Under the pieces are notes generated by a model. The model had not been told where the DNA came from, did no database searches, and saw only the letters and a program-made list of their open reading frames with translations. A program made the position numbers and the translations under genes. DNA of 64,000 bases from Desulfofundulus kuznetsovii DSM 6115 (GTDB taxonomy: Bacteria > Bacillota > Desulfotomaculia > Desulfotomaculales > Desulfovirgulaceae): contig NC_015573.1 in the NCBI RefSeq assembly GCF_000214705.1, positions 953,001-1,017,000 of the forward strand. Reading direction: 5' to 3'. Numbering within the stretch: the first letter of the stretch is position 1; every line of letters starts with the position of its first letter. This document shows positions 2 to 26,904 of the stretch, one piece after another.

Positions 2-42
2 AAGGAGGTGTTTGGGGCAGCGGGCCGCCGGGGTCCGCTGCC
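2..42 (+). promoter_or_regulatory. SD-hairpin-AUG leader, copy 1
   Basis: A strong Shine-Dalgarno sequence (2-10) is followed by an 11-bp stem, 16-26 paired with 32-42 around a 5-nt loop. The start codon of the next gene is at 52, 43 nt past the SD core. The stem has a different sequence from the other ten copies but keeps its pairing (GGCAGCGGGCC with GGTCCGCTGCC). That compensatory change supports a conserved RNA fold. Confidence 0.8.
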
Positions 43-51
43 TTTGTAAGC

Positions 52-324
52 ATGACAAAAGTACGACTTAAAGAACTTATATCGAATTCGATAGTGCAAG
101 AAATTAAACAAAAGATTATGTTAAAAATTGCAGTTCGAAAGGTTCTCAGAGAAGTTTTCAGCGAAATAGAAAGAGTTGCAAGTGCAAAAGTCGGAAATTA
201 TGAGATTTATCTTGCGAATAGTAAATGTGGTAAGTACGTTATTCATACTGCAGAGTGTCGCTTGGGGTGCGTCATGAATCCGGTATTTTTCACAAGGTCG
301 AATCCAGAAGCATCGAAGACGTAG
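52..324 (+). CDS. hypothetical protein behind hairpin leader (90 aa)
   Basis: The family is not recognised. The first 65 residues are rich in Lys, Ile, Val and Glu and look helical, followed by a short segment with three cysteines. The DNA is clearly more AT-rich than the gene that follows, which suggests a separate origin. The ATG at 52 is chosen because it sits just after the hairpin leader, as in the other leader genes. The last 20 or so codons overlap another open frame (255-512), so the natural 3' end may have been lost where two sequences were joined. Whether the whole ORF is translated is uncertain. Confidence 0.5.
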   Translation: MTKVRLKELISNSIVQEIKQKIMLKIAVRKVLREVFSEIERVASAKVGNYEIYLANSKCGKYVIHTAECRLGCVMNPVFFTRSNPEASKT

Positions 325-512
325 ACTCCTTCGTGCGCATTATGAACCAGATGGGCGTTGACCCCAGGCCGTACATCAAGGCCGACACGACGAAGGTCAA
401 AAAACTGCTCGGCGACAACCCGGAGTTGCTGGAAAAGCTGGGACCAGCAGTCCGGGACAACAGCTACACCCGGTTTGAGAGCAAGAAGGTGAAAGGGGAT
501 GAGGTCGCATGA
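255..512 (+). pseudogene. C-terminal remnant of an element core gene
   Basis: From about position 290 this frame has high-GC codon use and reads as the end of a normal soluble protein (motifs VRIMNQMGVDPRP and KVKKLLGDNPELLEKLGP). The frame is closed by a stop at 231 and has no convincing ribosome site. The likely reading is that its 5' part was replaced when the upstream hairpin-leader gene was joined here. Its TGA overlaps the ATG of the SbcC-like gene (ATGA at 509-512), so the two were probably translationally coupled. A GTG at 255 is the earliest possible start. Function unknown. Confidence 0.5.
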
Positions 513-2479
513 AGATAAACCGCCTTTTCCTGCACAACTTCCGCAACCACGAACACACGGAAATTGTCCTGGATGCCATTAATATCCTGGTCGGCAAAAA
601 CGCCGCCGGCAAGTCCTCCATCAAGCACGCCATCGAGTACCTGCTGACCGGCAGGGTCACCGGGCTGACCGATGAAGCCGGGCGCGGGGCCGCCGAGGTC
701 CTGCCCCGGCACGGGGCCGATGCGGCTACCGTAGAGGCCGACATCGAGGGCCTGGGCACGGTCACCCGCTCCACCACCGGCGGCCTGGCGGTGGAGGGCA
801 TGAAAGGGTCCGCCAGAGACCAGCAGGAAGCCCTGTGCAGGTTCGTGGGCGCTTCCCCGGACGTAATCAGCGCGGCCATCAACACCGGCAGGTTCCTGTC
901 GCTGCCCCCGGCGGAACAGAAGGCCCTGCTGTTCCGGTTGCTGGGGTTTACCTTCACGAAAGACAGGTTCCTGGCGCACATCCCGCCGGAATGCCGGGAT
1001 GTGTTTGACCGGCTTTACCCTCCCGGCTTGGCCGGTGGTGCCGAGGTCTTTGACCGGCTGGAGAAGGTTTTCCGGGACGAGAGACGGGCCGCGAAAAAGA
1101 CGCTGAAAGAACTGGAGACCCTGGCCGCCGGTTCCCCAGGGGAATCATCCCTGCCGCCCGGGGCCTGGGAGAACCGGGAGCAGATCCGTCAGCAGCTGGC
1201 CGACCTGAAGAGACAGCGGGACGACCTGTTGCAGACCCGTGCCCGGGCGAGCGAGGCCGGGAAGCAGCGCCGGGAACTGGAGCGGGAAATCGCGGCCCTG
1301 GAAGAAAAACTGGCCGGACTGCGGGCGAGGGAGGAAGAACTGCGCCCCCAGGGTGACGACAGAGCCCTGGCCAACTATACCGAATCCATGACCGCCCGCA
1401 TGGACGTGCTGGCAAAGCAATTGGAAACACTCCGGAACGAGCGCATCCTGGCTGCCAGTCACCTGGAGAGCCACAGGCAAAACAAAGAAGGTTGGCAGAA
1501 TCTCATCGAGCGCATCAAGGCGGATGAGCGCTGCCCCCTGGGGCCGGGGATAGTGTGCACCGCCGACCGTACGGCTATGGTCAAGCAGGTAGAACGGGAC
1601 CTGGCTGCAGTGGACGGGCACATTGAGAAGGCCGCGGCCGAGGTGAAGCGGCTGGAAGAAGAGGCGGCCCGGGTGGAGGCTGAGCTGAACGAGGCCAGGG
1701 CCAAACTGGACGAACACCGCCGGCAAATCCAGGAGTGGCAGCTTGTTGCCAGCCAGGTGAAGCAGGCGGAGGAAACCCTGGAGCGCTTCCGCCAGGCCCT
1801 GGCTTCCCTGGCCGAATACGACCCTGACGACCTGGCCCGGCTGGAGCAGGACCTGGAGGCCCTGGAAAAGCGGATTACCGCCGGTGAGGACCTGGTGCAG
1901 CGCCTGGCTGTGGAGGAATCCCGCCGTAAGGAACAGGAAAAGCTGGCCGCGCGGGTGGAACAGGCCTGTGCGGAGGTGGAGGCCCTGGAAATCCTGGTAG
2001 AGCTGTTCGGGCCGAAGGGACTGCGGCAGCGGCTGCTGGCCGACGTGCTGGACCGCCTGCAGGCCCGGGCGGACGAACGGATGCAGCTGCTGACCGGCGG
2101 GGAGTACAGGGTCCAGTTCAGCGCCGAGGGCAAGGACGGCTTTGCGGTGACGGTATTCCGGAACGACATACCCAGAACGGTTAATCAGTTATCCACCAGC
2201 GAACGCCTGCGCCTGGGCGTGGTCATGCAGGACATCCTGAACGGCCTGACCGGGCTGGGGCTGATGGTCATCGACGACGCCGAGACCCTGGACCCGCAGA
2301 ACAAGATGGCCCTGGTAAACATGCTCCTGAAAATCCGTAGCGAGTACGAGACCATCATCGTGCTGTCCGCCCTGGGCGAGACGGTGCCTAGAAACCCGGG
2401 GATCCCGGGGCTGGCGATGTTCCTGGTGGAGGACGGGACAGTGAGGCCAATACCGGCGCCGGCGGCGATGACGGCTTAA
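509..2479 (+). CDS. SbcC/Rad50-like SMC-family ATPase (656 aa)
   Basis: An N-terminal ABC-type head has Walker A GKNAAGKSS near residue 29. A long Glu/Arg/Leu-rich coiled coil follows (about 190-490), and then a C-terminal half with a signature-like QLSTSERLRLG (about 559) and Walker B MVIDDAETLD (about 585). At the apex, about residue 341, is CPLGPGIVC, a spaced cysteine pair instead of the usual CxxC zinc hook. The protein is shorter than chromosomal SbcC (about 1000 aa), as in phage-encoded relatives. It probably acts on DNA ends or recombination intermediates of the element, but no SbcD-like nuclease is adjacent. The start overlaps the preceding frame by 4 bp. Confidence 0.85.
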   Translation: MKINRLFLHNFRNHEHTEIVLDAINILVGKNAAGKSSIKHAIEYLLTGRVTGLTDEAGRGAAEVLPRHGADAATVEADIEGLGTVTRSTTGGLAVEGMKGSARDQQEALCRFVGASPDVISAAINTGRFLSLPPAEQKALLFRLLGFTFTKDRFLAHIPPECRDVFDRLYPPGLAGGAEVFDRLEKVFRDERRAAKKTLKELETLAAGSPGESSLPPGAWENREQIRQQLADLKRQRDDLLQTRARASEAGKQRRELEREIAALEEKLAGLRAREEELRPQGDDRALANYTESMTARMDVLAKQLETLRNERILAASHLESHRQNKEGWQNLIERIKADERCPLGPGIVCTADRTAMVKQVERDLAAVDGHIEKAAAEVKRLEEEAARVEAELNEARAKLDEHRRQIQEWQLVASQVKQAEETLERFRQALASLAEYDPDDLARLEQDLEALEKRITAGEDLVQRLAVEESRRKEQEKLAARVEQACAEVEALEILVELFGPKGLRQRLLADVLDRLQARADERMQLLTGGEYRVQFSAEGKDGFAVTVFRNDIPRTVNQLSTSERLRLGVVMQDILNGLTGLGLMVIDDAETLDPQNKMALVNMLLKIRSEYETIIVLSALGETVPRNPGIPGLAMFLVEDGTVRPIPAPAAMTA

Positions 2480-2501
2480 TAAAAAGGGAGGGCATACAAA
2501 G

Positions 2502-2678
2502 ATGGCAGGAAGAGCTGAAGATAAGGCCAAGAACGCCGAGATGGTCGAATTTGTTGAAATGTATTGTAAAAAGTGCGGTTCAGAGATCGAGTACGTAGTG
2601 GAAAATAGTTGCCCTTCATGCGGTTTTATAATGATTCACTGTCCCCGGTGTGGCTATAAGTTTTATTTTGGCGAATAA
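2502..2678 (+). CDS. small double zinc-ribbon protein (58 aa)
   Basis: A 58-codon ORF starts at ATG 2502 behind the site aaaaagggagg. It contains three CxxC pairs (CKKC, CPSC, CPRC), the pattern of a rubredoxin-like or double zinc-ribbon fold. It lies 22 bp downstream of the SbcC-like gene and probably shares its transcript. Such mini zinc ribbons are common in phage early regions, where they often bind nucleic acid or polymerase. No specific role can be read here. Confidence 0.7.
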   Translation: MAGRAEDKAKNAEMVEFVEMYCKKCGSEIEYVVENSCPSCGFIMIHCPRCGYKFYFGE

Positions 2679-2776
2679 ACGGTGAAGCCGTTGCCGGCGG
2701 TTAATGCGAGAACGGCATAAGATAGCCATACTTAATTTCGCGAAATATAGCAAAATCATAAAAGGAGGAATCTACC

Positions 2777-3415
2777 ATGAGGTACACCGTTTACGAAGTC
2801 CACTTTGAACTGATTGAGCCGATCCTGGGCACGGTCCCGAAGGATCCGGATGTATACACCCGCTATATTGCCGGGAAAAAAGACCGGAACGGCAACTTGC
2901 TCATCCCGGACGAACGGATGATAGCCGAAGAAGTATCCACCGCGTCTGACCCGGCGGACAAGCTGGAGAAGTCAGGCTGGACCGGGTTCCACCAGGACCA
3001 GAACGGGCTGTTCCTGTACAATTACGTCGTACTTGGCTTTCTCAAGGAGGCCGGGAACGTCCTGAAGGAGCAACTCGGGATTAAGAACCTCAAGAGCAAG
3101 ATCGACCAGTTTGTTTTCGTTGAGCTCCGCCGTATTTACCTGGGCAAAGATAAGCCGGATGGTTACATTGAGCGCCCGCTCCGCGCGATGACCATGCAGG
3201 GGCCGAGGGTGACCGTGGTCAGGAGCGATTACATCGACGCCGGCACCCGGTTTGCCGCACAACTCCTGGTCCTGGACAACAAGAAGATCAACGGTGCGGT
3301 CCTGCGGGAAATCCTCAGCTACGGGCGGTTTAGAGGGTTGGGCCAGTTCAGAAATGGGTCCTACGGCCGGTTTACTTTTGAGATGGCCGAGCTGCGAGGC
3401 AAAAGTATAACTTAG
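2777..3415 (+). CDS. conserved phage-type protein with Gly-rich loop (212 aa)
   Basis: The start ATG follows a good ribosome site (aaaggagg, 2760-2767). The protein opens with a beta-strand-like segment (YTVYEVHFELIEPILGTVP) and ends with a glycine-rich segment GRFRGLGQFRNGSYGRF near residues 184-200. That arrangement resembles the ferredoxin-like fold and G-rich loop of RAMP-type RNA-binding proteins, but this is a resemblance only, with no cas gene nearby. It follows the zinc-ribbon gene in the same orientation and is the last gene before an 840-bp non-coding repeat tract. Function unknown. Confidence 0.75.
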   Translation: MRYTVYEVHFELIEPILGTVPKDPDVYTRYIAGKKDRNGNLLIPDERMIAEEVSTASDPADKLEKSGWTGFHQDQNGLFLYNYVVLGFLKEAGNVLKEQLGIKNLKSKIDQFVFVELRRIYLGKDKPDGYIERPLRAMTMQGPRVTVVRSDYIDAGTRFAAQLLVLDNKKINGAVLREILSYGRFRGLGQFRNGSYGRFTFEMAELRGKSIT

Positions 3416-4240
3416 CAAAGCTGGGGCACAGCAAGGCACAGGCTCGGCGAGGCATGGCATGGCGCGGGCGAAGCAGGGCGAGGCGTGGCCGCGCAAAGGC
3501 ATTGTCCACCCTTGCTTTGCGGGGCAAAGGCAAAGCGCGGCCCGTTTTGCGGCGGCAAAGCGTTGCGTCCCAGGGCAGAGGCTATGCAACGTTAAGCGGA
3601 GCTACGGCATAGCAGGGTCCTGCCTTGCATGGCCGGGCATGCATGGCCGGGCAGCGGCAAAGCAACTCAGGGCGCGGCAGGGGCTTTGCTCAGTTCCGCC
3701 TGGTTCAGTGCCGCATGGGCATGGCAGCGTGCAGTCCAGCAACGCCAGGCAAAGGCAACGCCCGGCGCGGCGGCAAAGCAAAGTACGGCGCGGCGGCGGC
3801 AAAGCAAAGTATCGCGGCGGCCATGCTTCGCACGGCACGGCACCGGCAGAGTTAAGCTAAGTCTGGCAACGGCTCAGTTTGGCTTCGTACGGCGGGGGTA
3901 CGGCGTTGCACCGCGGGGCCGTGGCCAAGCATTGCATAGCCCGGGCACTGTACACCAGGGCAGGGTATTGTGAGGCGCGGCCGGGGCACTGCACTGCCCG
4001 GCACCGGCGAAGCGAGGCGGGGCTGAGGCAAAGTCCGGCACCGCATCGGTATTGCATGGCCATGCGCTTTGTGGCGACGGCGCAGTATCGCAGTGCAAGG
4101 CAGGGGCGTTGCATTGCTGCGCGGCGCGCGGTGCTGCGGCGGTAAAGCCCGGCCCGGCGTTGCTTTGAGCGGCGGCGGTAAAGCCATGCCTGGTTCCGCC
4201 CGGCGGTGCGAGGGCTTGACACAGCAATGCTTTTTGTAAC
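3416..4240 (+). repeat. degenerate 5-nt-periodic low-complexity tract (about 825 bp)
   Basis: This stretch between two convergent genes consists almost entirely of GC-rich words such as GGCAAAGC, GGCATGGC, GGCGAGGC and TTGCAT. In places GGC recurs every five bases exactly (3441, 3446, 3451, 3456, 3461). Stop codons are scarce, so all frames give spurious ORFs of 70-130 codons. None has a ribosome site or a normal protein composition. No gene, promoter or clear long inverted repeat was found in it. Confidence 0.75.
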
Positions 4241-4246
4241 GGCAGC

Positions 4247-4273
4247 AAAAAGCCCCCGCTATTTGGCGGGGGC
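4247..4273 (-). terminator. intrinsic terminator of the minus-strand small-gene operon
   Basis: On the minus strand GCGGGGGC (4266-4273) pairs with GCCCCCGC (4252-4259), followed by a run of five T residues. The stop codon of the ribbon-helix-helix gene (4259-4261) lies inside the hairpin. Confidence 0.85.
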
Positions 4274-4426
4274 CTGCTCCCCGGCGTGCTGCCGGAGGTA
4301 GTCTTCCAGGGCCTGGCGGACCAGGTCTTGGAGGGAGATGCCGGTCTCCACCGAGAGGATCTTTATCCGCCGGTGGAGGTCCGCCGGGATGCGGACGGCC
4401 AGCTTGGTGACCTCTCTAGAATCCAT
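4259..4426 (-). CDS. ribbon-helix-helix (CopG/Arc-type) protein (55 aa)
   Basis: A 55-codon ORF starts at the ATG 4426-4424 behind GGAGGTGTGAT. The N-terminal strand KLAVRIPADLHRRIK and the two helices after it (ILSVETGISLQDLVRQALEDYL) match the ribbon-helix-helix fold that binds DNA as a dimer. It is the last gene of a minus-strand operon of four small genes and ends within the terminator hairpin. It may repress its own operon, whose control region (5360-5504) it would share with the divergent replication genes. The role is inferred from the fold only. Confidence 0.8.
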   Translation of the reverse strand: MDSREVTKLAVRIPADLHRRIKILSVETGISLQDLVRQALEDYLRQHAGEQAPAK

Positions 4427-4427
4427 A

Positions 4428-4673
4428 TCACACCTCCCCCTCTTCTATTTGCCAGGTTTCCCCCACAATCCTATGGGGGAAACACCGGCCACACCAACTG
4501 TGCTGGTTCCACAAGCTACCGCCGCACTCAATACAGCGGTAGCCAACTTCCTCCGCCTCTCCAGGCGGAATATAAGCGGGAGAGGCGGGATCGAGACATT
4601 CGCATACCGGAGGGTTTTCCTCCGGGAAGGTTTTGACAGCGCCGCAACGGGCACAGGTTCCTGTAACCAACAT
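4428..4673 (-). CDS. zinc-ribbon protein (81 aa)
   Basis: The ATG follows aaaggaggaaag. The sequence holds CARCGAV near residue 7, CEC near 24, CIECGGSLW near 48 and CGRCFPHR near 61, enough for two or three zinc sites. The rest is acidic and proline-rich. It ends 1 nt before the ribbon-helix-helix gene, whose ribosome site lies within this gene's last codons, so the two are probably translationally coupled. Likely a nucleic-acid or protein binding adaptor; no exact family recognised. Confidence 0.7.
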   Translation of the reverse strand: MLVTGTCARCGAVKTFPEENPPVCECLDPASPAYIPPGEAEEVGYRCIECGGSLWNQHSWCGRCFPHRIVGETWQIEEGEV

Positions 4674-4765
4674 CTTTCCTCCTTTCTGCCCGGCCTTGCC
4701 CCCGCCGGGCTGGGGAAGTATAGGGCAGTTTTGTTAACCCGGCATACCCAGGCCGGGTGGGAGGA

Positions 4766-5180
4766 TTACCCCTCCCGAGGGATGGCCATACTTTCGAAGT
4801 GGTCTACAACCTCCCACTCCGAGTAGTCACCGGGATAGTACCCGGCGAGGCCACCCGGGTAACGGATCTCATAGTGCCGGCACCCTATATTCCAGGCGCC
4901 AGCCTCTGTCTGCAGGTGCCAGCCACTCTCTGTTTTGTATGCCCCAGTTTTCCGGCCAGTCTTCCTCCGGGATCCAGTCCTGGAGACTGCCGGAACCACG
5001 GCCATCCGGCAGATACAGAATAGTATCTCCGGACGGGGTGGTAACTTCCAGGTAACCGGGCACGTCCTCCAGAGGCCGCAGGGCAACCGGGAAGTCCTCT
5101 TTCACAGGCTCCAGGCCGTCCCAGTTCCCGGGGAGGTTGGCAACAGCGTTACACACGGTGTTCCAGGTGGTTTGCAACAT
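4766..5180 (-). pseudogene. hypothetical protein with probable frameshift
   Basis: The first frame runs from ATG 5180 (ribosome site aaggagg in the end of the preceding gene) and reads convincingly through EEDWPENWG near residue 80. It then stops at 4869. A second frame overlapping it continues with YKTESGWHLQTEAGAWNIG and ends at 4766 with a well-composed tail (GGLAGYYPGDYSEWEVVDHF). A single-base change near 4950 would join the two into one protein of about 138 aa. This may be a sequencing error or real decay. The protein is Trp-rich and acidic; no function recognised. Confidence 0.55.
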
Positions 5181-5182
5181 GA

Positions 5183-5359
5183 TTATTCAACCTCCTTCGC
5201 TTCTTCATCGTGCCATTCTGGATTGCCGCCGCAGGGGTAGGAGCCCTGCAGGTTCTTTTGCCGGTACTCCTCCCACTCCTTGAGGATTTCCGGCGTCAGG
5301 TTCGGGAGTTCTCTCCCGCAACCAGGACAGCGGGGGGTGGCTTCAGTTTTTTGGAACAT
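5183..5359 (-). CDS. small Cys-containing protein (58 aa)
   Basis: The start is placed at the ATG 5359-5357, where AAAGGAGG lies at good spacing; an upstream in-frame ATG lacks a ribosome site. The protein has CPGCGRELP near residue 11, an acidic helix, and a third Cys in SYPCGG. It is probably a mini zinc-binding protein. It is the first gene of the minus-strand operon 5359-4259. Its end overlaps the ribosome site of the next gene. Function unknown. Confidence 0.6.
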   Translation of the reverse strand: MFQKTEATPRCPGCGRELPNLTPEILKEWEEYRQKNLQGSYPCGGNPEWHDEEAKEVE

Positions 5360-5462
5360 TCTGATCATCCTCCTTTTGGTTTTGTGGCTTGCCGTCTTGC
5401 TAGCTTGCTTCCAGTATAGCAAGCCAGGTGGAGGCCGTCAAGGGGTTTTTGCCAAAAAGTTA

Positions 5463-5492
5463 TCGACAAAATTCGACAAAAATTGACATAAC
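5463..5492 (+). repeat. three 10-bp direct repeats before the DnaD-like gene
   Basis: TCGACAAAAT, TCGACAAAAA and TTGACATAAC follow each other without gaps, just upstream of the start at 5505. A DnaA-box-like TTATCGACA overlaps the first one. They lie in the divergent control region between the replication genes and the minus-strand operon, and could be operators or initiator binding sites. Confidence 0.55.
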
Positions 5493-5504
5493 GAGGTGTT
5501 TTGG

Positions 5505-6365
5505 GTGCCTAAAAACAAAGGCTGGTTCCGGCTGTACGACAGGATGATAGACAGCCCCCAGGTGCTGGAACTGAATGATTCCGAATTCCGGCTGCTCATC
5601 TCGCTGTGGTGCCTGGCCAGCTCGGAAAATAATCACGGCCTGGTGCCATACTCGGACGCGGCCATCCGCCGGCGGGTCATGCCGGAGAAATCCCTGGAGG
5701 AAATCCGGCAGATGCTTGCCCACCTGAAGGCGTTGGACCTGCTGGCAGGGGAGGAAGGGAAATACGAAATCCCGCGCTGGGACATCCACCAGTATGGCTA
5801 CCCGTCCCGCGTGCCGGAAAACAGGGCAGATTATAAGGAAAGAAATCGGAAAACTATCGGAAAGTCATCGGAAAGCAATCGGAAAGCGGACGGGGAGAGT
5901 ACGGAAAGTGGCGGGGAAGGAATCGGAAAGTCATCGGAAAGCGATGGGAAAGAAATCGGTAAGGTAGATCCAGATACAGATAAAGATCTAGATATATATG
6001 TGTGTGTTAATAATAGCGCGCGCGAATTTGAAAAGCGTAAGGGCAGACCAATCTCTCCCGCCGAAGCCGAATTCTTCCAGCAGGCAGAAGAAATCCACGG
6101 ACCTGAGCTGGTCCTGGAAGCCATCGCAGAAGCCTTCCGCCAGAAGAAAAACCCCCACCCGGGCTATATCCGGGGCATCCTTGAAAACTGGGCGCGGGAC
6201 GGCCTGCGGACCGTCGAGGATGTACGCCGGGCGAACGAAAAGGCAACGGAAAAACATCGGAAAGACAACGGAAAGGGTGAGGTAAATGGACGGGCTGACC
6301 CCGTGGCAGACGGAGATAAGTACGCTATTCCTGCCGACTTCTACTGGCACGACGAAAGCAGCTGA
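5505..6365 (+). CDS. DnaD-like replication initiator / replisome organiser (286 aa)
   Basis: A winged-helix-like N-terminal domain (about 1-105, GWFRLYDRMIDSPQVLEL) is followed by a Ser/Lys/Glu-rich linker (about 110-155). The C-terminal domain carries the DnaD pattern PGYIRGILENWARDGLRT near residue 230. This is the standard layout of phage initiators that open the origin and recruit the helicase loader, here the DnaC-like gene just downstream. GTG 5505 is preferred because GAGGTG sits at good distance; a GTG at 5496 overlaps that site. The linker is encoded by an 11-bp iteron array, so the origin probably lies inside the gene, as in the lambda O gene. Confidence 0.8.
   Translation: MPKNKGWFRLYDRMIDSPQVLELNDSEFRLLISLWCLASSENNHGLVPYSDAAIRRRVMPEKSLEEIRQMLAHLKALDLLAGEEGKYEIPRWDIHQYGYPSRVPENRADYKERNRKTIGKSSESNRKADGESTESGGEGIGKSSESDGKEIGKVDPDTDKDLDIYVCVNNSAREFEKRKGRPISPAEAEFFQQAEEIHGPELVLEAIAEAFRQKKNPHPGYIRGILENWARDGLRTVEDVRRANEKATEKHRKDNGKGEVNGRADPVADGDKYAIPADFYWHDESS
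5845..5965 (+). repeat. 11-bp iteron array inside the initiator gene (candidate origin)
   Basis: ATCGGAAA or a one- to three-base variant recurs exactly every 11 bp at 5845, 5856, 5867, 5878, 5889, 5900, 5911, 5922, 5933, 5944 and 5955. Since 11 is not a multiple of 3, the repeat is kept at the DNA level, not by codons. It is followed by an AT-rich stretch (about 5975-6015). A second group in the same 11-bp register lies at 6245, 6256 and 6267. Iterons beside an AT-rich stretch inside an initiator gene are a typical origin layout. Confidence 0.75.
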
Positions 6366-6975: not shown

Positions 6976-6988
6976 AAATCGGGCGGCC

Positions 6989-7052
6989 CGGCCCGCCTTG
7001 ATTTATTTCAGACCAAGGAGGTGAAAAAGGGCGGGCCGCCGGGGGCCTGCCC
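6989..7052 (+). promoter_or_regulatory. SD-hairpin-AUG leader, copy 2, with upstream alternative arm
   Basis: SD aaggaggtg at 7015-7023 is followed by a 9-bp stem (7029-7037 with 7044-7052, one G-U). The start codon is at 7062. Upstream CGGCCCGCC (6989-6997) is fully complementary to 7030-7038, the 5' half of the stem, and would enclose the SD in a loop. Confidence 0.8.
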
Positions 7053-7061
7053 TTTATACAC

Positions 7062-20295: not shown

Positions 20296-20296
20296 T

Positions 20297-20360
20297 ACCT
20301 GCCTGACGGTCACCGCACCCGCCCCTCTGAAGGAGGCAGGTTCCCAGGCCGCATTTTTTT
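20297..20360 (+). promoter_or_regulatory. hairpin between vWA and partner genes, copy 2
   Basis: ACCTGCCT (20297-20304) pairs with AGGCAGGT (20334-20341), with a T run at 20354-20360. The T run is 12 nt from the stem, so this is a weak terminator at best. It could lower expression of the partner relative to the two upstream genes. Confidence 0.45.
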
Positions 20361-20377
20361 CTATGGGGGTGAAAATT

Positions 20378-22123
20378 TTGAATAAAAGCGACTCACAGTG
20401 GGTGCGGGAAATCTTCCGCCGAGTCATGGAACAAAAAGGTTGTGTCCCCCGGCAGCAGAAAAGCTTTGAGCGGATCAGGGTGTCCAAGAAGGGACACGTT
20501 CTCCTGGACAATAGCATGATTCTCAGCAACTCCTTCCTGAAACGAGAAGGAGCTTTAACGGAGAATGGCATGGAAAAGCTGCTTTCCACGCTTTTACCTG
20601 CTGCTGTGGAAAAGATAAAGGACGCCCTGGACAGTCCTCCCAACCGCTGTCCGTTGCCGGCACTGAATGCATGCGACTTTGCGGCTGAAACGGAACCGGG
20701 GGAAGAACCTCCCGCCCTTCTTCTTGAGAAGTTTGCTGAATACCACCGGGATTACTCTGCACGGCTCCGCAAGTTCACCGGTAAAGTTTTCGACGGCCTT
20801 GCCCCGTTTCCTGAATTTGAGTCCGAATCTGTCGCGGCAAGGGCCGGTTGTGTTGTTTCGCCGGAGACTTTTTCTGTCGTCAGGAGGCGTGACGGGCGGT
20901 GGGTGCTCACGTGCGGGCGGTGCGGTTTGATTGCCGTATTTCCGTCTATAGAGGCGGGAAAACCGCAACCCGACCAAATAGGTACGAACATCGACAAGGA
21001 CATGCAGATCATAACCCTTTATGCAGCATCTGCCTGGTCAAAATATCTCTACGAGGACGGCATAATCAACGAAGCGGAGCGGTGCGCAAAAGAAGCGGAG
21101 GAGAAGCTGGCCGGTCACATATATTCTAAAGAACTGGCCGCGAAACTGCATGAACTCAAGACTATAGCCGGAAATTTAAAGCGTGGTGAGTTAACCTTAT
21201 ACGGTGATTCGCTGGCTGTCCCTGGTCCCAAACCACCCGTTCCCGTACGTGCAGTGGGAGAATACCTTGCATCTGTTCTTACGGAAATCAATGCTGGGCA
21301 GAAGATGTCAGTCGAAGAAGTCCGGCATGTTCTTTGTCAAACGTGGGGAGAATCGGGAAAGGAACTGTGGGAGAAAGCACAAAACAAGTGGGCCGGACTG
21401 CCTGCACTTTACCGGCTCCTTCCCGCCGCTAGGCGGGCGTACGAAAGGCTTTCAGCCTTCGCCGGGGCGTGGGAGCAGGGGAAAATAAAAGTAATAGGAG
21501 GCGTCCTGCACCTGGGGGGAGAATCTTTTGCAACTCCCGATGGGCAGACCGCTCTTTCCATCCTGGAACACCACTTTCGTCAGTTTGAAGACAGTTTGAC
21601 CGGGCGGGAACTGCTGGGCGATATTGAAACTATCAAGAAAGTGCTGCAGTATATAGCGGATAACCAGGGTGAGGTGGGAGTAACAACTGCGGTTGCCGTT
21701 TTAACCGGGAGCAGGGCGAGCAAAATAATGCAGAAAGGGTACGACAAATCGCCCTATTACGGTATACTCCGAGGACAGTATACGCAACAGAAGCTTGCTG
21801 AACTTGTCAATCGTCTGGTCAGGGAAGGTTTGCTGACGGTCAAATACATTGGTTACTACGAATTGCCTGTACTGCATGTACCAAAGGCGGTCCAGAAGGC
21901 GCTGGGCGAACTCGAAAAAGGCGTCTCGACGGAAGAGAAAAAAGATCGCCTGTGCCGGATGATAGATACCGCTGTCAAGAACAGGTCGTGGGAAGAACTC
22001 GGTAGCATGGTCAGGGAAGGGGAATTTGCTGCAGAGGTGGTCTTGGTAGCAGCCTCTATCTTCTGGCCTACCGGCAAGGCTGCAAAAGTTCTGACCGAGG
22101 TTCGGAAAACTGTTCCTGCATGA
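20378..22123 (+). CDS. winged-helix / zinc partner of the MoxR-vWA system, copy 2 (581 aa)
   Basis: Like the copy-1 partner (8621), it has a Cys-x22-CxxC block (LTCGRCGLIAVF near residue 185) and an RQC-like winged helix at about 411-505: TAVAVLTGSRASKI, then YDKSPYYGILRGQYT and LPVLHVPKAV. The GSR-x(n)-YGI spacing is close to the RQC domain of RecQ proteins, with no helicase motifs present. The C-terminus IFWPTGKAAKVLTEV parallels copy 1. TTG 20378 is preferred (site GGGGGTG), though an ATG at 20363 is possible. The likely role is target recognition for the MoxR-vWA pair. Confidence 0.75.
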   Translation: MNKSDSQWVREIFRRVMEQKGCVPRQQKSFERIRVSKKGHVLLDNSMILSNSFLKREGALTENGMEKLLSTLLPAAVEKIKDALDSPPNRCPLPALNACDFAAETEPGEEPPALLLEKFAEYHRDYSARLRKFTGKVFDGLAPFPEFESESVAARAGCVVSPETFSVVRRRDGRWVLTCGRCGLIAVFPSIEAGKPQPDQIGTNIDKDMQIITLYAASAWSKYLYEDGIINEAERCAKEAEEKLAGHIYSKELAAKLHELKTIAGNLKRGELTLYGDSLAVPGPKPPVPVRAVGEYLASVLTEINAGQKMSVEEVRHVLCQTWGESGKELWEKAQNKWAGLPALYRLLPAARRAYERLSAFAGAWEQGKIKVIGGVLHLGGESFATPDGQTALSILEHHFRQFEDSLTGRELLGDIETIKKVLQYIADNQGEVGVTTAVAVLTGSRASKIMQKGYDKSPYYGILRGQYTQQKLAELVNRLVREGLLTVKYIGYYELPVLHVPKAVQKALGELEKGVSTEEKKDRLCRMIDTAVKNRSWEELGSMVREGEFAAEVVLVAASIFWPTGKAAKVLTEVRKTVPA

Positions 22124-22149
22124 AAGCCGGAGATTTTCCGGCTTTTTTT
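22123..22149 (+). terminator. terminator of MoxR-vWA operon 2
   Basis: AAAGCCGG (22123-22130) pairs with CCGGCTTT (22138-22145), followed by a T run. Confidence 0.88.
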
Positions 22150-22187
22150 GTTTAAGGACGAAATTTGGCCGTCCTTAACTCAGCGAC

Positions 22188-22371
22188 TTGTTTTTTAATA
22201 ACTGGTGTGGTAAAATTAAGTTGTCGTATATTAATTCGATTGCCGGTACTTTTAAGATACCGGAAGAAAGGTGTTCTCTTTACGGCTTCTTTTAAGAGGC
22301 CGGGGAAAGTAAAAAACACGGGACCAAAAGCCTCACTGTGCCTTTTTCAGCCGGGTGGGGCTTTATTTTTT
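22188..22371 (+). promoter_or_regulatory. promoter and attenuator leader, copy B
   Basis: This repeats leader A: TTGTTT-N17-TAAAAT (22188-22216), hairpin 1 (22243-22248 with 22258-22263), hairpin 2 (22283-22289 with 22296-22302) and a terminator hairpin (22327-22335 with 22356-22364) ending in a T run. In hairpin 2 a U-G of copy A becomes U-A, and in the terminator a G-U becomes G-C, so the pairing is kept while the sequence drifts. Confidence 0.7.
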
Positions 22372-22372
22372 C

Positions 22373-22409
22373 AGAAAGGAGGGATGGGACGGGCCGGGAA
22401 GGTCCGCCC
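22373..22409 (+). promoter_or_regulatory. SD-hairpin-AUG leader, copy 7
   Basis: SD agaaaggaggg is followed by a stem of 22386-22395 with 22401-22409 (one bulged A), and the start codon is at 22420. It sits just behind the terminator of attenuator B. Confidence 0.75.
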
Positions 22410-22419
22410 CCAAAAAGCT

Positions 22420-22725
22420 ATGATTTGCTGTCCAAAGTGCTTCACTCGGGAAAATGTCCGTTATATCTCCAGAGTCCCACATTTTATTTTTGGATCCGGT
22501 TTGAAAGCTACAGAGTTGCCGTTGTATAGGTGCGTCAACTGCGGTCATATATTTGTGAGTGAGGACACTAAATTTTTTCTTTGCAAAAGTTTGGGTGACG
22601 AAGAAGCTCGATTCTGTATAAAGCGTCACATTGAACTGCTAAATGAAGATCTTAAACGCTGGAAGAGAGAAATCGAAGAGATAAATAGAACTATGGCGTC
22701 TAATATGATCACCTGTAGGCGCTGA
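22420..22725 (+). CDS. zinc-ribbon protein with C-terminal helix (101 aa)
   Basis: The N-terminus MICCPKCFTRENV and a second pair YRCVNCGHIFVSE near residue 38 form a four-cysteine zinc ribbon. A charged helix follows (LNEDLKRWKREIEEIN). The start is set at ATG 22420, behind hairpin leader copy 7. An in-frame ATG right at the SD would add only the hairpin-encoded residues and is too close to the SD. It is one of two genes placed behind the duplicated attenuator; the other (12159) is also Cys-rich. Function unknown. Confidence 0.65.
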   Translation: MICCPKCFTRENVRYISRVPHFIFGSGLKATELPLYRCVNCGHIFVSEDTKFFLCKSLGDEEARFCIKRHIELLNEDLKRWKREIEEINRTMASNMITCRR

Positions 22726-22744
22726 GCTAACAGGGCCGACCGGC

Positions 22745-22796
22745 CCAAACCATTTCCACGAAAGGGAGGGAATGGGGCGGGCCGGATGGTCCGCCC
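22745..22796 (+). promoter_or_regulatory. SD-hairpin-AUG leader, copy 8
   Basis: SD aaagggaggg is followed by the stem 22775-22783 with 22788-22796, and the ATG is at 22805. Upstream CCATTTCC can also pair with GGGAATGG just behind the SD, placing the SD in a loop. Confidence 0.78.
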
Positions 22797-22804
22797 CGCA
22801 ATTC

Positions 22805-23029
22805 ATGATAACGGTGAAGGATATTATCAAGAAATACCCACGCGGCACGAAAATCGATGTCTGGGTGCGCAACTGGGGCGGCCCTTCCTACCTGGGCAGG
22901 TTTGCCGTCGAAGCCCGGACGCTCCGGCACGTCGAATCCGGGTTGAAGTGGGGAGAACTGGCGAAAGACGTCACCCGTGATAACCACGGGATGAGGTTAA
23001 TAATCGTAAGGGTGAAGAAGGTAAATTAA
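22805..23029 (+). CDS. small hypothetical protein (74 aa)
   Basis: The protein reads MITVKDIIKKYPRGTKIDV and continues with a beta-rich, basic sequence ending in IIVRVKKVN, suggesting a small soluble fold. ATG 22805 is chosen because it follows hairpin leader copy 8. It is flanked by other single genes with the same leader and has no clear operon partner. No family recognised. Confidence 0.55.
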   Translation: MITVKDIIKKYPRGTKIDVWVRNWGGPSYLGRFAVEARTLRHVESGLKWGELAKDVTRDNHGMRLIIVRVKKVN

Positions 23030-23051
23030 CCAACGGGCCAACCGGTCCAAA

Positions 23052-23095
23052 CCATTCCAGAAAGGAGGAATGGGGCGGGCCGGGAGGGTCCGCCC
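23052..23095 (+). promoter_or_regulatory. SD-hairpin-AUG leader, copy 9
   Basis: SD aaaggagg (23061-23068) is followed by the stem 23073-23081 with 23087-23095 around GGGAG, and the ATG is at 23104. Upstream CCATTCC can pair with GGAATGG and enclose the SD. Confidence 0.8.
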
Positions 23096-23103
23096 TGGAA
23101 ACC

Positions 23104-24071
23104 ATGAGAAATCTTGAAGCAGCCCTCAAGTTCCGGTATAATACTGGGAGAAAGGGTGTTAAGCGAGTGGACGGGATTAACCGGACCAACGACTATGTTT
23201 TTAAGCGTATCTTTGGTTCTGAAGAAGGTAAGGAAGCCCTGCTGGGATTCCTCAATGCGGTGTTCAAACTACCGCCCGGCAGAGAACTGACCGACCTGGA
23301 GTTGCTGGACAGGGAAATCGACCCGGAATACCTTCTCGACAGGGCCGCCCGGCTGGACGTACTGGCGAAGGCGGCTGACGGGTCGCTGATCAACGTCGAG
23401 ATACAGATTGCCAACAGGTTCGACATCGACAAGCGGACACGTTCTACTGGGCGCGGCTGTACGGCGGCCAGTTAAAATCCGGCCAGCAGTTTTCGGAACT
23501 GCGGAGGACAGTCGCTATCAACATCCTGGCCTTCGACTGGTTTGCCGACGAGCGGTACCACCACGTCTTTCGTATCCGGGACATCGAGACCGGGGAACCG
23601 ATGAACGACCACCTGGAAATCCACTTTCTGGAGCTGAACAAGGTGCGGAGGCGCGAGTGGGACCCGGACGACCCGCTGGAAGCGTGGCTGATGTACCTGA
23701 ACAACCTGGAAGGGGAGGGGTTGAGGGTGATCGCGGAAAAGAACCCGGCGATCAAGAAGGCCCTGACCGTCGAAGAAGTTTTCAGGAAGAGCGAACTGGA
23801 GCGCCGCCTGTATGAGTTGCGGGAAAAGGCCATCCGGGACGAAATCTCCATGGTGGCGGGCGCGAAAGCAGAAGGTAGAGCGGAAGGTATGGCTATCAAA
23901 GCCCAGGACGCCATTATCCGTTATCTGAGGAAAAAGTTCAAGGTCGACTGCGAAGATAAAATACGGCAGGTCAGGGACGTTGAAACCCTTGACGGGCTTT
24001 TCGACAGCCTGCTTGATGCCGGGACTTTGGAAGAGGCTGAGGAAGTTATAGCCCGTGTGCTGCCGCAGTAA
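23104..24071 (+). pseudogene. Rpn-family PD-(D/E)XK nuclease/transposase-like protein, frameshifted
   Basis: The first frame (23104-23475) has the family start (NRTNDYVFKRIFGSEEGKE) and catalytic-type strand residues INVEIQIANRFD near residue 98. Near 23440 the frame breaks. The next frame continues the protein (FYWARLYGGQLKSG, then INILAFDWFADERYHHVF) and runs to 24071 with the usual helical C-terminus. One inserted base joins them into about 322 aa, the normal length. Rpn proteins are PD-(D/E)XK nucleases that promote recombination. The gene lies behind hairpin leader copy 9. A shortened second copy is at 25501-25731. Confidence 0.8.
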
Positions 24072-24105
24072 CACTCCCTTACGGGCAAAATAAAATTTGT
24101 AAGTT

Positions 24106-24142
24106 AAGGACGGTCTCTTTACAAGGCCGTCCTTGTCATTTT
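24106..24142 (+). terminator. intrinsic terminator after the Rpn gene
   Basis: AAGGACGG (24106-24113) pairs with CCGTCCTT (24127-24134), followed by GTCATTTT. A near copy follows the shortened Rpn gene at 25767. Confidence 0.75.
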
Positions 24143-24150
24143 CAGAGCCT

Positions 24151-24205
24151 CCGGCCCAAACCATTCCAAAAGGGAGGGAATGGGGCGGGCCGGTAGGGTC
24201 CGCCC
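24151..24205 (+). promoter_or_regulatory. SD-hairpin-AUG leader, copy 10
   Basis: SD aaagggaggg is followed by the stem 24183-24191 with 24197-24205, and the ATG is at 24214. CCATTCC upstream can pair with GGAATGG behind the SD. Confidence 0.8.
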
Positions 24206-24213
24206 CGTATACG

Positions 24214-25064
24214 ATGACACTCACCGACAGAGCGAGAGAAGCCTTGAACCGTCTTTTAGAAATGTTTCGCACCGGAGACCTGCCCGCTGCCGTAGCCCGG
24301 ACGGTCATCCGGGCGAAGACCGGGTACGAGAGGCCGTCCGACAGGTGGAGCCTGGGCAACCGGCTGCTTATGTACCTGGCCGGTACGGAGGACGCCAGGG
24401 GCTACAGGCAGTGGGAAGAAGTAGGGCGACACGTCAAGAAAGGCGCTAAGGCATTCTATATCCTGGCCCCGACCACCAGAAAGAAAACGGTTAAGGAGCG
24501 GGAAGTGGACCCGGAGACCGGCGAAGAGCGGGAAGTGGAGCGGGAGCGCACGGTTATTACCGGCTTCCGGTGTGTCCCGGTGTTCCGGTACGAGGACACG
24601 GAGGGTGAACCCCTGCCGGAAGCGGACTATAACCCGCCGGAGCCGCCGCCCCTGTTCGACGTGGCCAGGCGATTCGCGGGTGACGTGAAATACAAGCCCT
24701 TCGTAGGAAGGTACTACGGCTATTTCAGCCCCGCCAGGGACGAGATAGTTCTGAGTACCCACGATGCGCGCACACCTTCTTTCACGAACTGGCCCACGCC
24801 GTCCATCACCAGGTGAAGCCGGGCGGGTTGAAACCGGGCCAGCACGCGGACCAGGAAATCGTGGCCGAGACCGTGGCTGCCGCCCTGTGCGAGATGTACG
24901 GCTTTTCCGGGTACATCTGGCACGGATGGGAGTATATTCGGCATTACGCCGGTCAGGACGACCGGAAGGCCCTGAAGGCCGTCATGGGCGTTCTGGCGGA
25001 CGTGGAAAAGGTGCTGGACGTTATCCTGGGCGCGGCAGAAGAAAGGAACAAGAAGGTTGCGTAA
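24214..25064 (+). pseudogene. ArdC-like antirestriction/zincin protein, frameshifted
   Basis: The N-terminal part has the ArdC-type ssDNA-binding pattern (NRLLMYLAGTEDARGYRQWEE, then HVKKGAKAFYILAP). The C-terminal part carries FFHELAHAVHH, an HExxH zinc-protease site, in a frame that ends at 25064. The first frame runs from ATG 24214 to 24816, and the break lies near 24768; one base change gives a protein of about 283 aa. Proteins of this layout are carried by mobile elements and protect incoming DNA or cleave host proteins (family knowledge). The gene follows hairpin leader copy 10. Confidence 0.72.
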
Positions 25065-25117
25065 GGAAGAGAGGTTGGATTTCCCGGCCCTGAACCAATT
25101 CAGAAAGGATGGTATAA

Positions 25118-25501
25118 ATGAAAACCCTGTACCAGTGCGAAATTTGCGGGATGGTTTACAAAAACCGTAAGGACGCCGAAAAGTGCGAAGCCCGCGGTAG
25201 GGCGAAGGTGTATCCGGTTGGAATGTTATACTCCGCCGGGTATAAAGACATCGTTTTCGCCGTGGCTAAAAACTATCCCGAAGGACACAGTAACTTTTTT
25301 GCGGCCTGGGCCGCGCGGGATAATGGTTATGGTGATAACTACGGAACAGAGTACTGCGAAGGCGGGTCGGTTTTATATCCTCCCGATCCGAAACTGCCTG
25401 CTTTCCAGCGCATGGTTAACTACCTTACGCGCCATGGTATCCCGGTGACGGTTTGGGACGGTGAAAAACCTGTACCGCTGGAAGATTGGCTAGGAAGATA
25501 A
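25118..25501 (+). CDS. hypothetical protein with zinc finger (127 aa)
   Basis: The N-terminus YQCEICGMVYKNRKDAEKCE is a C2-type zinc-finger-like segment. The remainder is an aromatic-rich domain without known motifs (SNFFAAWAARDNGYGDNYG). The ATG follows agaaaggatggtata. Its last codons run directly into the remnant of a second Rpn gene, so the 3' end may have been altered by recombination. Function unknown. Confidence 0.6.
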   Translation: MKTLYQCEICGMVYKNRKDAEKCEARGRAKVYPVGMLYSAGYKDIVFAVAKNYPEGHSNFFAAWAARDNGYGDNYGTEYCEGGSVLYPPDPKLPAFQRMVNYLTRHGIPVTVWDGEKPVPLEDWLGR

Positions 25502-25731
25502 ATAAGGAGGCCCTGCTGGGTTTTCTCAATGCCGTGTTCAAGCTGCCGCCCGGCAGGGGGCTGACCGATGTAAATCTGCTGGATAGGGAAATCGACCCGG
25601 AATATCTTCTCGACAGGGCCGCCCGGCTGGACGTGCTGGCGAAGGCAGCCGACAGGCTTTTCGACAACCTGCTTGACGCTGAGACGCCGGAAGAAGCTGG
25701 CGAGATCATAGCCCGCGTGCTGCCGCAGTAA
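25501..25731 (+). pseudogene. internally deleted Rpn-family remnant
   Basis: The sequence KEALLGFLNAVFKLPPGR to DVLAKAAD matches the N-terminal region of the Rpn gene at 23104. It then jumps to its C-terminal end (LFDNLLDAETPEEAGEIIARV). The deletion of about 210 codons falls at a short shared GAC(A/G)GG. No start of its own is evident. The terminator and hairpin leader after it also match those after the full-length gene, so a whole 3' cassette was duplicated and then shortened. Confidence 0.75.
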
Positions 25732-25766
25732 CACTCCCTACGGATAAAACAAAAACCTGCAAGTTT

Positions 25767-25803
25767 AGGGACGGTCCTGTAAAGAGACCGTCCTTGTCAT
25801 TTC
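25767..25803 (+). terminator. intrinsic terminator after the Rpn remnant
   Basis: GGACGGTC (25769-25776) pairs with GACCGTCC (25786-25793), followed by TTGTCATTT. Confidence 0.7.
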
Positions 25804-25812
25804 CAGGGCCTA

Positions 25813-25871
25813 CCGGCCCGCCAAAATTCCCACGGGAAGGAGGAAACGGGGCGGGCCGGGATGGTCCGCCC
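25813..25871 (+). promoter_or_regulatory. SD-hairpin-AUG leader, copy 11, with strong alternative arm
   Basis: SD gaaggagg (25836-25843) is followed by the stem 25849-25857 with 25863-25871, and the ATG is at 25879. CCGGCCCGCC (25813-25822) is a perfect 10-bp complement of 25850-25859, the 5' arm, so the two folds exclude each other. Confidence 0.82.
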
Positions 25872-25878
25872 CTCATAC

Positions 25879-26904
25879 ATGGCACGACTGGCATCTGAAG
25901 CTAAAGGCGGGTATTACCCCACTCCACCGAAAGAAATGGGACTTGTCTGTAAAAAGCTCAGGGTAGAACCCGGTACAAAAGTTAACGTAATCGATCCCTG
26001 CGCCGGAGAAGGGGATGCCCTTAAAATGGCCTCCGACCACCTAAAGTCGGAAGGTGGCAATATTGTCACCTACGGAATAGAAATAGAGGCCACCAGGGCA
26101 GAAAAATGCCGCTCGAAGCTCGACCGTGTGGTGAGGTGCGGCTACGAGGAAGCCCGGGTGACGCCGAAGGCGTTCTCCTTCATGTGGCTGAACCCGCCCT
26201 ACAACGAGCGGGGTGGGGAGCGCGCGGAAGTCACGTTCCTGCGCGACCTGACCGACCCCGTGAGCGGCAAGCTCATGAACGGTGGGGTGCTTGGTTACTG
26301 TATCCCGCAGTACGTCCTGACTCAGGCTGCCCCGATCCTGGCCGCCAGGTTTGACGACCTGGCAGTGTACAGGTTCACCGACGAAAACTTTCCGGTATTC
26401 AAGCAGATAGTGGTGTTCGGGGTAAGGCGCGCTAAGGCCAGGCAGGGGAGTGAAGCGCGGGAAATCAGGGAATGGCTGAAAGAACTTTCCCGTAAAGAAG
26501 GACTTCCCGTGCTGGACGCTAATGACGGCGTGACGTATCTCATACCCGAATCTCCTGCCGTAAAAATCACCTTCCGGGGTTCCGTCACGGACCCTCTGGA
26601 GGTGGGCGGGGACATTGTGAGGTCCCCCGTGTGGGAGGAAATCAAATACCTTCTCCCGATGCCCAGGAAAGTGTCGTCATTGAAACCTCCCGTGCTGCCT
26701 TTAAAGCCCGCCCACGATGCTGTAGCGATAGCCGCGGGCGCGATCGGGGGCAACATGGGGACCCACCTTCTGGTGGGCATGACGAAAAAGGTCGTGGACA
26801 GGCAGGTTATCCCGGAAGAAAAGGGGGAAAAAGTCATCGAGACGGAACGGCCCAGGACCACAATCCGGGTTTTCACCCCAGAAGGAATCTACGAACTGGA
26901 GTAG
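25879..26904 (+). CDS. DUF6094-like class I DNA methyltransferase (341 aa)
   Basis: A SAM-binding motif IDPCAGEGDAL lies near residue 45 and the amino-methyltransferase motif LNPPYN near 105, fitting an N6-adenine or N4-cytosine DNA methyltransferase. The N-terminus ASEAKGGYYPTPPKE is typical of the DUF6094-type proteins found in mobile elements beside SNF2 helicases, as here (next gene 13 bp downstream). No separate target-recognition domain was seen. It may protect or mark element DNA. The start is fixed by hairpin leader copy 11. Confidence 0.8.
   Translation: MARLASEAKGGYYPTPPKEMGLVCKKLRVEPGTKVNVIDPCAGEGDALKMASDHLKSEGGNIVTYGIEIEATRAEKCRSKLDRVVRCGYEEARVTPKAFSFMWLNPPYNERGGERAEVTFLRDLTDPVSGKLMNGGVLGYCIPQYVLTQAAPILAARFDDLAVYRFTDENFPVFKQIVVFGVRRAKARQGSEAREIREWLKELSRKEGLPVLDANDGVTYLIPESPAVKITFRGSVTDPLEVGGDIVRSPVWEEIKYLLPMPRKVSSLKPPVLPLKPAHDAVAIAAGAIGGNMGTHLLVGMTKKVVDRQVIPEEKGEKVIETERPRTTIRVFTPEGIYELE

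What the first reader, a model, noticed from the sequence alone, without database searches (positions are those of the whole stretch)
2..25881. Eleven genes share a leader with a GC-rich hairpin between the Shine-Dalgarno sequence and the start codon
Copies lie at 2-52, 7015-7062, 12118-12159, 13284-13330, about 14350-14394, 15785-15829, 22373-22420, 22761-22805, 23061-23104, 24169-24214 and 25836-25879. Each has a strong SD, then a stem of usually 9 bp (GGGCGGGCC with GGTCCGCCC or GGCCTGCCC), then the ATG. The linear SD-AUG distance is 35-45 nt, too long for normal initiation. Folding the hairpin leaves roughly 10-16 nt. Copy 1 has a different stem sequence with compensating changes on both sides, and copy 4 keeps pairing through U-G. 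A hairpin bringing SD and AUG together is known for phage T4 genes 25 and 38 (established). A whole family of such leaders in one element would be new to me. It could tie these cargo genes to one regulator, to temperature, or to a modified ribosome.
Basis: partly seen in the sequence, partly recalled or inferred. Interest (0 to 1): 0.92.

Follow-up and report, generated by a model that had tools for sequence, protein, structure and literature searches.

The report
Hairpin-bridged translation leaders in conjugative elements
Mobile DNA elements of a group of anaerobic bacteria put the same foldable RNA leader in front of many of their genes, with a hairpin that brings a distant ribosome-binding site up to the start codon, and most of these elements also encode a protein related to ribosomal protein S1; it looks like a new, regulon-wide way to control when an invading element's proteins are made.

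Summary
All 11 leaders exist (10 clear, copy 5 weak). The same genome has two more clusters. Covariance models find the leader in 34 of 113 genomes of the order and in Moorella and other relatives. A second class has an unrelated stem sequence but the same layout.

The stem pairs covary. G·U far outnumbers A·C (148 to 7), so the sense-strand RNA is what is selected. The linear SD-AUG distance is 30-43 nt; leaving out the hairpin gives a median of 12 nt (IQR 11-12). This is a split ribosome-binding site, as in T4 genes 25 and 38, but used by a whole set of genes.

P2 flanks the SD. P1, an upstream strand, competes with the leader hairpin for its 5' arm. Computed energies of the two states are close. 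I infer a translational ON/OFF switch.

The genes are typical of conjugative elements (ArdC, RadC, SSB). Leaders co-occur with an element-encoded S1-like RNA-binding protein (28 of 34 leader genomes; p=9e-16). It is a candidate regulator, but physical linkage is not excluded. Rfam has no match. Function is inferred; nothing was tested at the bench.

The parts
2..54 (+). leader copy 1: SD, 11-12 bp hairpin (P3), ATG at 52 (gene 52-324). Its P1 and P2 5' strands lie just outside the window (L012)
6987..7064 (+). leader copy 2 (C-type): P1 5' strand GGCGGCCCGGCCCGCC, SD, P3, ATG at 7062
   Evidence: (minimum free energy structure is the closed form, -46.7 kcal/mol, z -4.4)
12118..12161 (+). leader copy 3: SD + P3 + ATG at 12159; no P1, terminator-like U-rich stretch upstream
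13253..13332 (+). leader copy 4 (C-type): P1 5' strand, P2 (TCACCT/AGGTGA), SD, P3 with U-G pairs, ATG at 13330
14347..14396 (+). leader copy 5, divergent and weakest; ATG at 14394
   Evidence: 8.5 bits
15752..15831 (+). leader copy 6 (C-type): P1, P2, SD, P3, ATG at 15829 (DUF6927 gene)
22373..22422 (+). leader copy 7: SD + P3 + ATG at 22420; no P1
22730..22807 (+). leader copy 8 (G-type): GGGCCGACCGGCCC (P1), CCATTTCC/GGGAATGG (P2), SD, P3, ATG at 22805
23033..23106 (+). leader copy 9 (G-type): P1, P2 (CCATTCC/GGAATGG), SD, P3, ATG at 23104 (PDDEXK_2 gene)
   Evidence: (closed form is the minimum free energy structure, z -3.5)
24142..24216 (+). leader copy 10 (G-type): P1, P2, SD, P3, ATG at 24214 (ArdC-type gene)
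25805..25881 (+). leader copy 11 (G-type): P1, SD, P3, ATG at 25879 (DUF6094 methyltransferase-like gene)
52..26904 (+). accessory region whose genes carry the leaders (ArdC-type, PDDEXK_2, DUF6927, DUF6094 and unknown genes)

Best explanation
Each leader is a translation-initiation switch shared by the accessory genes of a conjugative element. Shown by sequence: a strong SD, a stable hairpin (P3) of usually 9-12 bp, then the AUG, with a fixed spacing of about 12 nt once the hairpin is left out; a stem (P2) around the SD; and, in most copies, an upstream strand (P1) complementary to the 5' arm of P3. Inferred ON state: P3 forms and the 30S subunit holds SD and AUG together with P3 looped out (split ribosome-binding site, as in T4 genes 25 and 38). 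Inferred OFF state: P1 captures the 5' arm of P3, so the SD sits at the tip of a P1-P2 arm, 30-43 nt from the AUG and out of register. What flips it is not known. Candidate 1 is the element-encoded S1-like protein, a homologue of ribosomal protein S1, which would open P1/P2 or recruit the ribosome (about 35% likely). Candidate 2 is a ribosome finishing the preceding gene, whose stop codon lies next to P1 in about 40% of copies and which would cover the P1 strand (translational coupling). The likely purpose is coordinated expression of establishment and anti-defence genes after transfer.
For: P3: 98.9% of cells paired and 6 of 10 pairs with changes on both sides, above all 500 shuffles. Own 3' arm pairs better than arms from other loci (p about 1e-10 with one leader per locus). 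G-U 148 vs A-C 7; spacing without hairpin median 12, IQR 11-12; embedded ATGs fall evenly in all three frames (35/31/30), so the hairpin is not coding. P2: swap test p 1e-4 to 1e-7 with one per locus. P1: upstream flank folds with the 5' arm far better than shuffles (mean z -3.05); swap test p=9e-8 over all, 0.0015-0.03 with one per locus; closed-minus-open energy median -3.3 kcal/mol at 37 C and -1.8 at 60 C, against +10.5 and +8.2 with shuffled flank. A second class with another stem (TGGATACGGGC/GCCCGTATCC) keeps a complementary upstream strand (GCCCGTAATCC). S1-like protein: S1 domains, best PDB relatives are bS1 by sequence (E 7e-54) and by fold (E 2e-15). One copy accompanies each of the 3 leader clusters in this genome. 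Co-occurrence 28/34 leader genomes in the order, p=9e-16; 15/19 in the phylum sample, p=5e-21. Among genomes with a T4SS coupling protein, leaders occur in 27/32 with the S1-like protein and 3/17 without (p=8e-6).
Against: No experiment. P1 is the weakest helix: copies 3 and 7 and some homologues lack it, and the relatedness-controlled test is only p 0.0015-0.03. The SD is not predicted to be less accessible in the closed than in the open state (0.56 vs 0.50 unpaired), so OFF must work by distance rather than by hiding the SD. The S1-like gene usually lies near the T4SS coupling protein gene and could serve conjugation itself; co-occurrence within one element is partly linkage. A divergent S1-like group (about 138-173 bits), to which the copy nearest this window belongs (146.5 bits), occurs in several genomes without detectable leaders.
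Confidence: 0.6

Rival explanations
1. A constitutive split ribosome-binding site without a switch: P3 only sets the spacing, and P1/P2 are by-products of GC-rich spacer or of stability elements at the end of the preceding gene.
For: P3 and the spacing are much better supported than P1; copies 3 and 7 lack P1.
Against: Cognate P1 and P2 pair better than swapped ones; upstream flank folds with the 5' arm, mean z -3.05; P1 complementarity is kept when the stem changes to class 2.
Confidence: 0.2
2. Translational coupling device: a ribosome terminating on the upstream gene covers the P1 strand, P3 then forms and the next gene is started.
For: In about 40% of copies the upstream stop codon lies 22-48 nt before the SD, next to the start of P1.
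Against: In 32 of 147 copies a terminator-like hairpin lies within 150 nt upstream, and many stops lie more than 80 nt away.
Confidence: 0.2
3. DNA-level element: single-stranded-DNA promoter (Frpo-like) or recombination site of gene cassettes, acting during conjugative transfer.
For: Repeated hairpins in front of ardC, ssb and radC-type genes, as in leading regions and establishment islands (PMC8708921, PMC11541004); genes lie in cassette-like arrays.
Against: Hairpin lies between SD and AUG with fixed spacing, so it is inside the mRNA; G-U 148 vs A-C 7 points to the sense strand; stem sequence is replaceable (class 2), unlike a recombinase or polymerase site.
Confidence: 0.07
4. Transcriptional antitermination or attenuation RNA (put- or LoaP-hairpin-like) that lets RNA polymerase read through the terminators between the genes.
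For: Some leaders follow terminator-like hairpins closely, leaving little room for a promoter.
Against: Does not explain the fixed SD-P3-AUG spacing; many leaders have no terminator nearby.
Confidence: 0.06

Closest known systems
Split ribosome-binding sites of phage T4 genes 25 and 38 (PMC3014915)
   Same: Hairpin between SD and AUG shortens an overlong spacing (27 to 11 nt and 22 to 5 nt there; 30-43 to about 12 nt here)
   Different: T4: single genes in one phage group. Here: several genes per element (up to 11), at least two unrelated stem sequences, a competing upstream strand, and a co-occurring S1-like protein
E. coli thrS split ribosome-binding site (PMC3936740, citing Sacerdot et al.)
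   Same: The ribosome accommodates a long hairpin inside the initiation region without unfolding it
   Different: There the hairpin separates an upstream single-stranded region from the SD-AUG domain (from general knowledge); a single gene
pLS20-family establishment gene regulatory sequences EGeRS1/2 (PMC8708921)
   Same: A conserved sequence repeated upstream of establishment operons, ardC among them
   Different: EGeRS1 are 400-600 bp, lie upstream of the RBS and have an unknown mechanism; these are about 80-90 nt and include the RBS
TAACTGA repeats of Beggiatoaceae (PMC4679880)
   Same: Repeats just upstream of many start codons; ribosomal S1 proposed there as a possible reader
   Different: Direct heptamer repeats, largely without SD; host genes rather than a conjugative element

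Membership tests
T4 gene 25/38-type split RBS | SD-AUG distance too long in the linear sequence | tested here: met
   30-43 nt, median 37
T4 gene 25/38-type split RBS | Intervening stem restores a functional spacing | tested here: met
   median 12 nt, IQR 11-12 without the hairpin
T4 gene 25/38-type split RBS | Base pairing of the stem conserved in relatives | tested here: met
T4 gene 25/38-type split RBS | Breaking the stem lowers translation | not testable with these tools
   needs reporters or toeprinting
Riboswitch-like two-state leader | Mutually exclusive helices with similar stability | tested here: met
   P1 and P3 share the 5' arm; energies within 5 kcal/mol in 57% at 37 C and 72% at 60 C
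Riboswitch-like two-state leader | Member of a described cis-regulatory RNA family | tested here: not met
   no Rfam 15 family at gathering threshold, only chance-level matches below it
Riboswitch-like two-state leader | Conserved unpaired ligand pocket | tested here: inconclusive
   apart from the SD, loops and linkers vary in sequence; no formal test made
Single-stranded DNA promoter (Frpo type) | Hairpin lies upstream of the transcription start and outside the mRNA | tested here: not met
   hairpin lies between SD and AUG in all classes; transcription starts themselves were not mapped
Ribosomal protein S1 family (for the S1-like protein) | Tandem S1 domains with bS1 as closest relatives | tested here: met
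Ribosomal protein S1 family (for the S1-like protein) | Association with the 30S subunit | not testable with these tools
   not tested; sequence matches bS1 residues about 90-307, roughly domains 2-4 (domain borders from general knowledge)

The most novel reading that the evidence does not exclude
A conjugative element carries its own translation-initiation system: a dedicated S1-like protein that acts on a family of split-RBS leaders with interchangeable stem sequences, switching a whole set of establishment and anti-defence genes at the step of ribosome binding.
Probability: 0.3. Interest if true: 0.92.

Novelty: new variant of a known kind. Interest (0 to 1): 0.78.

Why it matters
Hairpins inside the SD-AUG spacer are known from a few single genes; here the arrangement appears as a widespread, structurally conserved and repeated device with alternative folding, so it offers dozens of natural variants to ask how a ribosome accommodates a hairpin during initiation. 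If the S1-like protein is its reader, a mobile element would control its genes with a captured ribosomal protein. It would also explain how these elements coordinate genes that lie behind terminators or in separate units.

Tried and rejected
(1) Coding function of the hairpin (N-terminal extension or leader peptide): embedded ATGs fall evenly in the three frames and 35 of 171 leaders have an in-frame stop. (2) Temperature sensing: closed and open states shift alike between 37 and 60 C. (3) SD sequestration as the OFF mechanism: not supported by predicted accessibility, so I describe OFF as out of register. (4) Known Rfam family: none. (5) The genome-wide pattern scan hit many GC-rich Streptomyces and other genomes; rescoring with R2 put these at about 31 bits or less, against about 35 and more for most real ones. 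(6) S1-like protein on named plasmids or phages: none found. (7) MAFFT alignment of the whole leader misplaced loop gaps; replaced by covariance-model alignment. (8) First closed-state energy calculation over-constrained the G-type; repeated with a fairer constraint. (9) Papers on such leaders in Desulfotomaculum, or on S1-domain proteins together with integrative conjugative elements and leaders: none in the library searched.
Full report
WHAT IS THERE. Each is SD, hairpin (here P3), ATG. A mechanical scan on both strands finds these eleven on the + strand and otherwise only a few weak chance hits. Copy 5 is divergent (8.5 bits with model R2) and copy 1 has a 2-bp longer stem (16.8 bits). The window is G000:C1:953001-1017000 of a 3,601,386-bp single-contig genome; I recall that length as Desulfofundulus (Desulfotomaculum) kuznetsovii, which is recollection only. 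The same genome has two more leader clusters, at 1590.8-1593.9 kb and about 2416-2419 kb, both on the minus strand.

DISTRIBUTION. Model R1 (six copies) found leaders in 21 of 100 relatives. R2, built from 97 matches, found them in 23 of 113 genomes of the order and 18 of 398 of a phylum sample. One viral contig also carries a copy (L228, 44 bits).

P3 IS A SELECTED RNA HELIX. On 93 distinct rows 98.9% of cells pair, 6 of 10 pairs have changes on both sides, and all five measures exceed all 500 shuffles; that alignment was fitted to the structure, so I added an alignment-light test. Own 3' arms pair better than 3' arms swapped in from other loci (p about 1e-10 with one leader per locus). Over 171 leaders there are 148 G-U and 7 A-C cells; since a G-U pair is an A-C mismatch on the other strand, selection acts on the sense strand. 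Linear SD-AUG distance is 30-43 nt, but without the hairpin the median is 12 and the interquartile range 11-12 (n=153). The model was built with the ATG included, which favours such an end point, but 142 of 147 copies have an ORF of at least 40 aa from it, and N-termini of homologous proteins begin there (for example MKKRVNIVSVK, MPAKRVNIVSVR, MKAKRVNIVSLK).

THE HALF THAT WAS MISSED. A conserved 5' flank lies upstream of the SD. Helix P2 (for example CCATTCC/GGAATGG, CCGTTC/GAACGG, TCACCT/AGGTGA) encloses the SD. Helix P1 pairs an upstream GC-rich strand (GGGCCGACCGGCCC or GGCGGCCCGGCCCGCC) with the 5' arm of P3, and so excludes P3. For copies 2, 4 and 9 the predicted minimum free energy fold is this closed form. 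The flank folds with the 5' arm better than dinucleotide-shuffled flanks (mean z -3.05, n=146). Swap tests: P2 p=3.8e-14 and P1 p=8.8e-8 over all, and 1e-4 to 1e-7 and 0.0015 to 0.03 with one leader per locus. So P2 is well supported and P1 moderately. Closed-minus-open free energy has a median of -3.3 kcal/mol (37 C) or -1.8 (60 C), against +10.5 or +8.2 when the flank is shuffled. Predicted SD accessibility is about the same in both states (0.56 closed, 0.50 open), so the OFF state, if real, works by putting the SD out of reach of the AUG and not by hiding it.

AN S1-LIKE PROTEIN GOES WITH THE LEADERS. Clustering of 1,240 predicted proteins around the leaders showed a roughly 280-aa family in 20 of 47 stretches, many of which are cut by contig ends. 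It has an S1 domain by Pfam (PF00575, E 9e-11) and the alignment reads as three S1-like units (my reading). Its profile best matches ribosomal protein bS1 in the PDB (E 7e-54), and the predicted structure (mean pLDDT 85) best matches bS1 (E 2e-15). This genome has three such proteins, one upstream of each leader cluster on the same strand; the one nearest the window lies 17 kb before it and is divergent (146 bits against 326-367). In the order 33 genomes have the protein at 200 bits or more.

A PREDICTION THAT HELD. Fifteen genomes of the order had the S1-like protein but no R2 leader. I fetched stretches next to the protein (14 of these genomes and a few others) and scanned them without a sequence model. 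Most contained SD-hairpin-AUG leaders with other stem sequences, chiefly TGGATACGGGC/GCCCGTATCC, again preceded by a complementary strand such as GCCCGTAATCC. The scan gave 36 hits in 310 kb there, many of them of this kind, against 7 dissimilar low-scoring hits in 97 kb of control DNA. A model of this second class (R3) matched 21 of 113 genomes. Combined, leaders occur in 34 genomes, 28 of them with the protein at 200 bits or more; 5 have the protein only and 74 neither (p=9e-16). In the phylum sample the counts are 15 both, 4 leader only, 3 protein only, 376 neither (p=5e-21). Among genomes with a T4SS coupling protein, leaders are in 27 of 32 with and 3 of 17 without the S1-like protein (p=8e-6). 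These p-values ignore relatedness, and genes of one element travel together, so they show association, not function.

GENES AND CONTEXT. Leader-bearing genes include ArdC-type antirestriction proteins, RadC, a protein that reads like single-stranded DNA-binding protein (MNKVMLVGRLTE..., L085; my reading), PDDEXK_2 nucleases, DUF6094 and DUF6927 proteins and many small unknown ones; neighbours include integrase, topoisomerase, coupling protein and a toprim-type protein. This resembles establishment or leading-region gene sets of conjugative elements (PMC8708921, PMC5512222). P1 starts close to the upstream stop codon in about 40% of copies; 32 of 147 have a terminator-like hairpin within 150 nt upstream.

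MECHANISM AND NOVELTY. I commit to a split ribosome-binding site (about 0.85 likely) that can be switched by competition between P1 and P3 (about 0.55), with the S1-like protein as candidate trans factor (about 0.35) and coupling to the upstream ribosome as the main alternative trigger (about 0.2). The working principle is that of T4 genes 25 and 38 (PMC3014915) and is related to thrS (PMC3936740). What is new, as far as the libraries searched show, is a family of such leaders with interchangeable stems across many genes of a mobile element, with an opposing strand and a co-occurring S1-like protein. I file it as a new variant of a known kind.

Noticed in passing
window 7610-11819 and 17871-22123: Two diverged copies of a three-gene set: AAA+ (MoxR-like) ATPase, RQC-domain protein, VWA/CoxE protein; both are followed by similar intergenic DNA (11888-12112 and 22159-22371) and then by a leader without P1 (copies 3 and 7).
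   Followed up: partly
window 23104-23815, 24214-25093 and 25503-25769: The PDDEXK_2 and ArdC-type genes look broken by frame changes compared with longer relatives in L013 (317-aa and 282-aa forms), and 25503-25769 holds fragments duplicating the PDDEXK_2 gene.
   Followed up: partly
window 5812-5974 and 6223-6286: Tandem repeats of an 11-base unit (about ATCGGAAAGNN), many copies; unexplained.
   Followed up: no
window 3549-4122: Irregular repeats rich in GCGGCGGCAAAGC-like units.
   Followed up: no
G025, G035, G040, G051, G058, G062, G064, G069, G104: A divergent group of S1-like proteins (about 138-173 bits), often within a few kb of a T4SS coupling protein gene, in several genomes without detectable leaders; the copy 17 kb upstream of this window belongs to this group.
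   Followed up: partly
L297 about 10942 and L300 about 7942: A conserved gene (MCRLFL...) whose start region has a long hairpin that takes in an SD-like stretch just before the ATG; different from the leaders here.
   Followed up: no
L228 (IMGVR_UViG_3300006674_001449) 1015-1056: One viral contig carries a clear leader copy (44 bits).
   Followed up: no
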